Positions 22,401 through 25,400 of a stretch of DNA of 64,000 bases are shown here, piece by piece. The notes beneath the pieces are model-generated. The model was not told the origin of the DNA and did no database searches. It saw only the letters and a list, made by a program, of their open reading frames with translations. The number at the start of each line of letters is the position of its first letter. Positions within the stretch are counted from its first letter, which is position 1. Source of the stretch: Antedon mediterranea (lineage: Eukaryota; Echinodermata; Crinoidea; Comatulida; Antedonidae); assembly GCF_964355755.1 (NCBI RefSeq), contig NC_092673.1, forward strand, positions 23,007,001 through 23,071,000. The letters are read 5' to 3'. The position numbers and the translations under genes were made by a program.

Positions 22401-25400
22401 ATGTAGGTGATAGTAATCCATCCTGTGTTAATCACAGTCACTACTGAAACTAGTGGAGATGACTGTTTCATGCCATAGGAACAATTACATGTATAAATAC
22501 AATTTTTTTATTTGAACTAATAAGCCTGATCATTGACATTTCGTTGCTGATGTGGCCAAGATGAAATCAGGTTTTGTTTTAAGCATTCATATTGCTAACA
22601 TATTTTAAAATATTGTTTAGGTTAAACCAAAAGGCATCAAAAGAAAAGCAGATACCACAACTCCAATGACAGAAGAAACGATATCACCTACAGACCTTAT
22701 GATTGTTGAAAAACCTGCTAAAATACCGTCTCGGAGAGAGAGTATGCGAGAAAAGAAACCAGTTCAACGGGATCTACCGGATACAGCTCAACATTCTAAA
22801 GGAAAGAAAGCAAAACTATCGGAACAATTACGTTATTGCAATATTATACTCAAAGAACTTATGTCTAAAAAACATGCTGTAAGTTAACTTACAGAAAAAT
22901 TGTATAAGATACATTATCTATAGATAATAATAATGGTCAATCAGACCGTTCACCTAAGGGGTTTAGGTAGCCTACAGAATGATCATCATTTAGTAAGAAC
23001 ACTTGTTTGTTTTGGTTTACCGTGATCTACTGTGGCAATATATACCTCATGGAATTCACACCTATTTTGGCAAGGTAGTTGTTTGGAAGGAAACGTTACA
23101 CAATATTTAAATGTTGGCATGTTATGAACGTGTTGTATGTAACCTGATATATCTGTTACAGTTGTGTTTGGTTCCCACTTGACGTAAATCAACAATGTAG
23201 GTGCTATGTTAGTGAGTTGACCAATTGCAAGCAACAGTTTTGATGATCCACAACTTGTCATTGGTCGATAGCTTGCATTGTGCTTACATCCTAGGTGTAG
23301 TGGGAACCAAGCTTTAACTTTATCTATACGAATGTTGTAAGATGGTTCAGAAGACTGTTGGAATTCTCAACATTATCTTGAAACACACTGTACTGCAAAA
23401 CTATATTAATCTTTAGTGTACTATACGTTTTGTTTTTTGCAGGCATATGCATGGCCTTTTCACAAGCCAGTGGATGTGGATGCATTGGGCTTACATGACT
23501 ATTATGATATTATTAAAAAACCCATGGATCTTGGATCAATTAAGGTTAGTGACTACTGCTTCAGTACAGTAACTTTTTAAATCACAATTAGCTAAATGTA
23601 TTATTGTGATAACAAGTTTATATGTTGTTGTAAACAGGGCCTTGTACTCTAGCTAATATAATGTTCTTGATTATGAGTAACTGAATGAAATCCGTGATTT
23701 TCAAGAGGGCCTCTTCAAGTCAGCTGTACTGCTCTACAGTAGTACAGTGGGTAGAGCTACCCACAAAGTTTAATAAATATAAATAAATTTCCTGCAGAAG
23801 TCTCGAAAATAACATCTGCTGTAAACAAACTCAATCAGCAAACACCAGTTGTATTGGCATGTTTCTTGCCTAAACACTTTGGCCTTGTCAATTAATACAT
23901 TATTTCCAAATGTTTTTGTTTTCTCTTCAGACACGAATGGAAAAGAGGGACTACAAAAGTGCGAATGCGTTTGCAGCTGATGTACGAGTAATGTTTACAA
24001 ATTGTTACAAATATAATCCACCAGATCATGATGTTGTTGCCATGGCTAAAAAATTACAGGTAAAGAATATAAATTGGGGTTTTTTTGGTCATCTATGTAA
24101 AAGAATATTTGTTGGTTTTTGCCAGTTTTTGTATGTTTGTTAATTTATTTATATTTTGTTCGATAAAATTGAATACAAAATTGTCATTTTTCAACAGTGT
24201 TCTAGAGATAGCATTGAGAAAACAAGTTTTTGTGTACAAAATGTTTTTAGTTCAATATATGTAATATGATGATCTCATGCGTGTCAACTGAGCCTTTCCA
24301 GCTTTTTATCCTTGATTCTTTCCTTGGTGTTTTACCATTGATAGAAACTTGATAAGAAAGCTGGGAGCTGGTGTAGGATCTAAAATTGTGATCTGATTAC
24401 AAACAGAATTTATAGAGTATAGGCATAAATCAATTCAATTTACGGCATATAGTTTTGTTTGACATGTATTTTTCTTATATACATTTTACAAACTGGTAGT
24501 TATATTAATATTGTAGGAGGTATTTGAATTAAAATTTGCAAAAATGCCAGATGAATTACTGGACTCGGAACCAGAAGAAAAAGAACCTGTGCCAGGCGCA
24601 CCTACAGGTACAGAACGGGTTAGTCACACTGGTAGCAGCGATTCGTCGGCGAGTAGTTCAGATGGCGATAGTGAAACGGAAAGAGAAATGAGATTAGCCG
24701 ATTTACAAGCGCAGGTAAGAAAAAGCACTTTGTGAAATAGATGTAATTATGCAGGGTGGAGGTGGGCAGGTGCTTCCACACAGTGAGTCTGGAACTTATT
24801 TGAAAGCCTTCCATGCAGCCTAATATTAAAACAGTGCACACCCAACACAAATTGGGATACCTCTAACTTCTTTTCGAACCCAACCCTAGAATTGGAAACC
24901 TAGTTTTATCTTGTCTTAAATATCTAAATTTAGCTATGAAGATTGCAAAAATGTAATAACAATTATAATATTTGTTGTAAATATTTTATCAAAGATATGT
25001 AATATGATGATCTCATGCGTGTCAACTGAGCCTTTCCAGCTTTTTATCCTTGATTTCTTTCCTTGGTGTTTTACCTTTGAGCGAATCTTGATGATAGTGC
25101 TAGGATTTGGTGTAGGATCTAAAATTGTGATCTGATTACAAACAGAATTTCAGATATTATATATATGTAAAGTGTAAATTTGTTTTATTTTTAACCTCTC
25201 CAAGGTAATGACACTTTTAATAAAAAAGTATATTATTTTAACTTTTAAAATATACTTTTTTATAAACTCTTTATTTCAGCTGGAGCGAGTTCAGAAGGAA
25301 TTATCTCACTTTACAGCTTCTCCGGCCACACAATCTTTAGCAGTCCCCTCAGGAAGTAAGCCAAAGAAAAAGAAAGATAAAGATTCAAAAGAACATAAAA

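What the first reader, a model, noticed from the sequence alone, without database searches (positions are those of the whole stretch)
24261..25139. Twin box C/D snoRNA-like genes in adjacent introns of a BET bromodomain gene
Seen: two ~140-nt sequences in introns 9 and 10, with sharp ends, GTAA/TTAC closing stems, boxes C (ATGATGA), D' and D (CTGA), and C' (TTGATGA in copy 2). Established: C/D RNAs are often intronic and duplicate into neighbouring introns of the same host. Inferred: the segments before D' (ctcatgcgtgtcaa) and before D (ctaaaattgtgat) would be guides. I do not recognise this RNA, and 140 nt is long for the class.
Basis: partly seen in the sequence, partly recalled or inferred. 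Interest (0 to 1): 0.75.

Follow-up and report, generated by a model that had tools for sequence, protein, structure and literature searches.

The report
Twin SNORD10 genes in BET introns
Two neighbouring introns of a chromatin-reader gene each carry a copy of SNORD10, a known small guide RNA that directs methylation of the splicing RNA U6; the same gene also carries three copies of an unannotated guide RNA that fits the ribosomal site served by SNORD10's gene-mate in human.

Summary
Its model has 139 positions, so the length is normal. The segment before D' pairs by nine Watson-Crick pairs with this genome's own U6 (nt 74-82), and the fifth nucleotide upstream of D' faces C77, the listed SNORD10 target. 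The segment before D has no target that I could find; rRNA was barely tested. Two copies were found in 354 Mb. The host has bromodomains and the only ET domain found. Eleven substitutions between the copies all lie in the D'-D spacer. New here: the gene holds three copies of an unannotated H/ACA RNA, with no further copy found. Its 3' pocket fits the rRNA site of yeast snR86 and human SNORA48, though not tested on this animal's 28S. In human, SNORA48 and SNORD10 share one host, EIF4A1. The pair may have stayed together across hosts. No expression data were available.

The parts
24261..24400 (+). SNORD10 copy 1, complete
   Evidence: RF01290, 62.3 bits, model 1-139 of 139
24999..25139 (+). SNORD10 copy 2, complete
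   Evidence: RF01290, 54.3 bits, model 1-139 of 139
24266..24272 (+). box C ATGATGA, copy 1 (copy 2: 25004-25010)
   Evidence: sequence
24278..24286 (+). U6 guide TGCGTGTCA, copy 1 (copy 2: 25016-25024); 24283 faces U6 C77
   Evidence: 9 Watson-Crick pairs to own U6 nt 74-82
24288..24291 (+). box D' CTGA, copy 1 (copy 2: 25026-25029)
   Evidence: sequence
24349..24355 (+). box C' TTGATAA, copy 1, degenerate
   Evidence: sequence
25088..25094 (+). box C' TTGATGA, copy 2, intact
   Evidence: sequence
24393..24396 (+). box D CTGA, copy 1 (copy 2: 25132-25135)
   Evidence: sequence
22342..22486 (+). H/ACA RNA copy h1, inside the same gene between the two bromodomains
   Evidence: two-hairpin fold, H box ATAGTA, ACA near the 3' end, pocket 14 nt before ACA; between domain exons
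26266..26410 (+). H/ACA RNA copy h2, in the intron between the two halves of the ET domain
   Evidence: ET halves
27395..27539 (+). H/ACA RNA copy h3, downstream of the ET domain; intron boundaries not checked
21374..21440 (+). candidate single-copy C/D snoRNA in the same gene, SNORD34-like guide (subthreshold)
   Evidence: 7 C/D families at E up to 0.1, all 7 below gathering score, best 31.2 bits against 43; 1 copy found in G000
20865..26789 (+). part of the host BET gene: bromodomain and ET-domain exons
   Evidence: Pfam PF00439 in 3 and PF17035 in 2 of 10 stretches; PDB BRD2 E 3.1e-31

Best explanation
Two paralogous SNORD10 genes are co-transcribed with a BET bromodomain gene and released from two successive introns. 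The terminal GTAA/TTAC stem with boxes C and D would form the kink-turn core that binds the C/D proteins and marks the RNA ends. The guide before D' pairs with U6 snRNA nt 74-82 and places fibrillarin's 2'-O-methylation on C77. The long D'-D spacer folds into an extra hairpin that copy 1 keeps and copy 2 has largely lost. Shown here: family match, boxes, pairing register, copies found, host domains, pattern of change. Inferred: transcription, release from introns, protein binding, methylation.
For: RF01290 match over the whole model in both copies. The guide pairs with own U6 and the fifth nucleotide from D' faces C77; the target stretch is identical in the 6 U6 loci fetched of 14 matches. Cm77 is listed as SNORD10's target (PMC7960923, table passage). 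The family consensus has the same register. The copies differ by 11 substitutions and one 1-nt indel (column 56); all 11 substitutions lie in columns 78-109, and the columns outside that range and 56 are identical. Two copies found genome-wide, both in this gene. Host domains.
Against: No RNA data. Copy 2 lost much of the spacer helix (fold z -3.16 in copy 1, -0.36 in copy 2), and copy 1 has a degenerate C', so one copy may be decaying. Guide-U6 complementarity alone is not very rare: 63 of 2000 shuffles of the guide region reach that score somewhere in U6; the weight rests on the register at C77 and the family match. The nucleotide next to D' does not pair with U6 here, whereas it does in the family consensus.
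Confidence: 0.93

Rival explanations
1. Copy 1 is the working gene and copy 2 (or the reverse) is a duplicate on its way to a pseudogene.
For: Copy 2 has three pairs of the family helix that are not standard pairs and scores 8 bits less; its fold is no better than shuffles (65 of 200 do as well).
Against: Boxes C, D' and D and the U6 guide are intact in copy 2, its C' is closer to consensus than that of copy 1, and the substitutions avoid boxes C, D' and D and the guide.
Confidence: 0.25
2. Besides guiding U6, the RNAs act in cis on BET splicing by pairing with their own introns, as reported for SNORD2 in EIF4A2 (PMC10324135, abstract and outline seen).
For: Several snoRNA genes or candidates sit inside one regulatory gene.
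Against: No pairing with the flanking intron was tested here, and no splicing data exist.
Confidence: 0.06
3. A mobile repeat that only resembles a snoRNA.
For: Two similar copies with sharp ends.
Against: 2 copies found in 354 Mb, both in one gene, and a full match to a curated family. The genome search scores only the best candidates (132 of 3437), so weak copies could be missed.
Confidence: 0.02

Closest known systems
SNORD10 / mgU6-77 (Rfam RF01290)
   Same: Length, boxes, guide register on U6 C77, spacer hairpin position.
   Different: Host is a BET gene, not EIF4A1 as in human (figure legend); two copies in adjacent introns; the segment before D matches the family consensus only in part.
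SNORA48 (human, 28S-3797) and yeast snR86 (25S-2314), for the three H/ACA copies
   Same: Same predicted uridine: the target motif U lies 56 nt after the first uridine of an H69 pattern, as 2258 to 2314 in yeast and 3741 to 3797 in human. That human 3741 corresponds to yeast 2258 is my inference.
   Different: No match to Rfam SNORA48 in this genome up to E 10 or at h1 up to E 10; common descent is not shown. Of 4 weak matches at h1, two are H/ACA on this strand, DdR18 (E 0.11) and ceN84 (E 0.76); all 4 are below gathering score.

Membership tests
SNORD10 (RF01290) | score above the curated threshold over the whole model | tested here: met
   62.3 and 54.3 bits against 37, positions 1-139
SNORD10 (RF01290) | boxes C and D with terminal stem | tested here: met
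   ATGATGA and CTGA inside GTAA/TTAC in both copies
SNORD10 (RF01290) | D' guide directed to U6 C77 | tested here: met
   own U6 from G000, fifth nucleotide from D' faces C77
SNORD10 (RF01290) | spacer helix of the family model | tested here: inconclusive
   no non-standard pair marked in copy 1; three pairs marked non-standard in copy 2
SNORD10 (RF01290) | stable RNA bound by fibrillarin | not testable with these tools
   no RNA or protein data
H/ACA box RNA (h1-h3) | hairpin-hinge-hairpin-tail with H box ANANNA and ACA close to the 3' end (rule recalled) | tested here: met
   minimum-energy folds of 3 of 3 copies; ATAGTA in the hinge in 3 of 3; ACA at 140 of the 145-nt stretch taken
H/ACA box RNA (h1-h3) | pocket about 14-16 nt before ACA, complementary to an rRNA uridine site (rule recalled) | tested here: inconclusive
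   14 nt in 3 of 3 copies; TTAATC and TTCATGC complement GATTAA and GCATGAA of a recalled motif found in prokaryote records; the animal's own 28S was not read
SNORA48 (RF00554) | score above the curated threshold | tested here: not met
   no match in G000 up to E 10 (41 of 17490 candidates scored; at that lax limit 6 of 14 control genomes ring, 0 over the cut-off)

The most novel reading that the evidence does not exclude
SNORD10 and the guide for the SNORA48 site are an old linked pair that moved together between unrelated host genes (EIF4A1 in human, BET in this animal) and was amplified in the new host (2 plus 3 copies). Co-hosting would then be conserved more strongly than the host itself.
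Probability: 0.25. Interest if true: 0.55.

Novelty: new member of a known kind. Interest (0 to 1): 0.33.

Why it matters
It gives a well-supported SNORD10 in a genome where one BET gene was found, with a host other than EIF4A1, and shows the U6 C77 guide kept in register. A change of host as such is ordinary: PMC3349704 notes that snoRNA genes can lie in different host genes in different species (passage). If the pairing of SNORD10 with a SNORA48-site guide holds in other animals, it offers a direct test of whether snoRNA gene-mates travel as a unit. One paper raises the possibility that eIF4A1 and SNORA48 gained a functional codependency in mammals (PMC8240307, passage); a BET host for a guide of the same site would fit that being limited to some lineages.

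Tried and rejected
Second guide: the segment before D was compared with U6, one U2 and one U4 locus and one rDNA stretch. The best-scoring runs were 9 pairs including one G-U, at places without support and without a shuffle control; the best run on the U4 RNA strand lies outside the U4 gene. Against U6, 1868 of 2000 shuffles do as well. The rDNA stretch L010 shows only an early part of 18S; the recalled motifs for later 18S, 5.8S and 28S were not found in it with up to 3 mismatches. U1, U5, late 18S, 5.8S and 28S were thus not tested. A search for the 11-mer at the D end gave 98 and 89 places by strand against 122 and 86 for its reversed control, so it says nothing.

Accessory pairing: spacer TTATCCTTG complements U6 68-76 (9 pairs including one G-U), next to the guide duplex. 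35 of 2000 shuffles reach this against U6 60-76, but 501 of 2000 against all of U6. The window 60-76 was chosen after seeing the match, and in copy 1 the segment is in the spacer helix. A weak lead only. In yeast, extra pairing matters for snR13 but played no role for the U18 C'/D' region (PMC5389607, passages).

Spacer loop GTGTT-TAC shared with the family consensus: 58 of 500 shuffles reach it; rejected as evidence.

Covariation in the H/ACA copies: one pair is changed on both sides, but with 3 sequences 179 of 500 shuffles do as well, so it adds little. 100% of 129 cells pair against 30-51% when slid, but the structure was derived from these sequences.

Literature: the listings (titles and openings of abstracts) of searches for SNORD10 (33 of 33), mgU6-77 (8 of 8), snoRNA with BRD2 (8 of 8), SNORD10 with EIF4A1 (12 of 125), invertebrate hosts (15 of 40), fs 1 h and bromodomain/BRD4 (8 of 87) showed no report of a BET host for SNORD10. 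Nine papers were opened, by passages or abstract only. The animal was not identified.

Full report
What is there. Two sequences of 140 and 141 nt lie at 24261-24400 and 24999-25139. Each has GTAA/TTAC ends, box C ATGATGA, D' CTGA and D CTGA; C' is TTGATAA in copy 1 and TTGATGA in copy 2. They sit in two successive introns, 24060-24516 and 24714-25279, ending 116 and 140 nt before the next exon (coordinates; subtraction mine). The local alignment of the two introns scores 253 against at most 36 in 300 shuffles, and ends at 24411 and 25150 on the 3' side, so 11 nt of 3' flank are shared.

What it is. A genome-wide search with the family and with copy 1 as DNA found these 2 copies only; one search scored 132 of 3437 candidates, so a weak copy could be missed.

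Target. U6 was found in the same genome (14 matches, 11 over the cut-off). The guide TGCGTGTCA makes nine Watson-Crick pairs with U6 nt 74-82, and the fifth nucleotide upstream of D' faces C77; both copies and the Rfam consensus share the register, though the consensus has one more pair next to D'. The target stretch is the same in the 6 U6 loci fetched of 14. A review lists Cm77 of U6 as the target of SNORD10 (PMC7960923, table passage). The rule that the fifth nucleotide from D or D' is modified is stated in PMC5389607 (passage). Pairing alone would be weak evidence (63 of 2000 shuffles); the register and the family match carry the claim. The segment before D is not supported as a guide, but rRNA was barely tested: the one rDNA stretch shows an early part of 18S, and later motifs were not found in it.

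Pattern of change. The copies differ by 11 substitutions and one 1-nt indel. All 11 substitutions lie in columns 78-109, in the 3' part of the spacer, C' included; boxes C, D' and D and the segments before D' and D are identical. Copy 1 folds better than 200 of 200 shuffles (z -3.16); for copy 2, 65 of 200 shuffles do as well (z -0.36). Copy 1 thus keeps the spacer helix with a poorer C', copy 2 the reverse.

Host. Of 10 reading-frame stretches scanned, three match the bromodomain (PF00439) and two the ET domain (PF17035, best E 7.5e-18); the ET stretch is closest in the PDB to BRD2. One ET-domain match was found in G000. In human SNORD10 lies in EIF4A1 with SNORA48 and SNORA67 (PMC9394076, figure legend).

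A second snoRNA in the same gene. The repeat finder had listed a 149-nt family with three copies at 22336, 26260 and 27389. The 3 matches found in the genome are these. h1 lies between the two bromodomains and h2 between the two halves of the ET domain; h3 lies downstream, and its intron boundaries were not checked. The copies align at 98% mean column identity, fold into two hairpins with ATAGTA (fits ANANNA, recalled) in the hinge, and have ACA near the 3' end with the 3' pocket 14 nt before it, in 3 of 3. No Rfam family reaches its gathering score there. The pocket halves TTAATC and TTCATGC complement GATTAA and GCATGAA, which stand around a U in a conserved large-subunit motif that I recalled. 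That motif was found in 42 prokaryote stretches, some from one genome. Of two that I checked with Rfam, L049 is archaeal LSU rRNA and L054, with the motif near its contig end, gave no family. In 34 of 42 the U lies 56 nt after the first uridine of an H69 pattern (recalled); in 8 of 42 the pattern was not found in range. The same distance separates yeast 25S-2258 and 25S-2314 (snR191, snR86; PMC8307265 table passage; snR86 for LSU2314 also in PMC2551606 passages) and human 28S-3741 and 28S-3797 (SNORA74A, SNORA48; PMC6466398 table passages; that 3741 equals 2258 is inferred). So these RNAs most likely guide the snR86/SNORA48 site. The animal's own 28S was not read, and SNORA48's model has no match in this genome, so I call them guides of the same site, not members of the family.

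Reading. SNORD10 and a guide for the SNORA48 site share a host in human (EIF4A1; rat SNORA48 is in intron 4 of Eif4a1, PMC8240307, passage) and share another host here. This could be chance, but with a few hundred guide genes per animal (recalled) a shared partner is not expected often. A block move, or an old common host, would explain it. It rests on one genome.

Verdict. The finding is real and correctly drawn; its main part is a known family with a known mechanism, in a host other than the human one and doubled. The linked H/ACA triplet raises interest somewhat.

Noticed in passing
window 22342-22486, 26266-26410, 27395-27539: Three copies of an unannotated H/ACA RNA inside the BET gene, no further copy found in the genome, with a 3' pocket that fits the snR86/SNORA48 rRNA site.
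   Followed up: yes
window 21374-21440: Single-copy C/D snoRNA candidate with a terminal stem, C, D' and D boxes and a SNORD34-like TTACCTACA guide; seven C/D families hit, all below gathering score.
   Followed up: partly
G000:C3 about 13659899-13714335: Large tandem array of U2 snRNA genes, many about 780 bases apart (46 matches listed in all, a lower bound).
   Followed up: no
G000:C6 about 21037846-21041605 and C11 about 21275730-21279200: Clusters of U4 snRNA genes; several U6 matches cluster on C9.
   Followed up: no
window 31581-32133: Diverged repeat array with many copies spaced 20 nt apart, downstream in the gene region.
   Followed up: no
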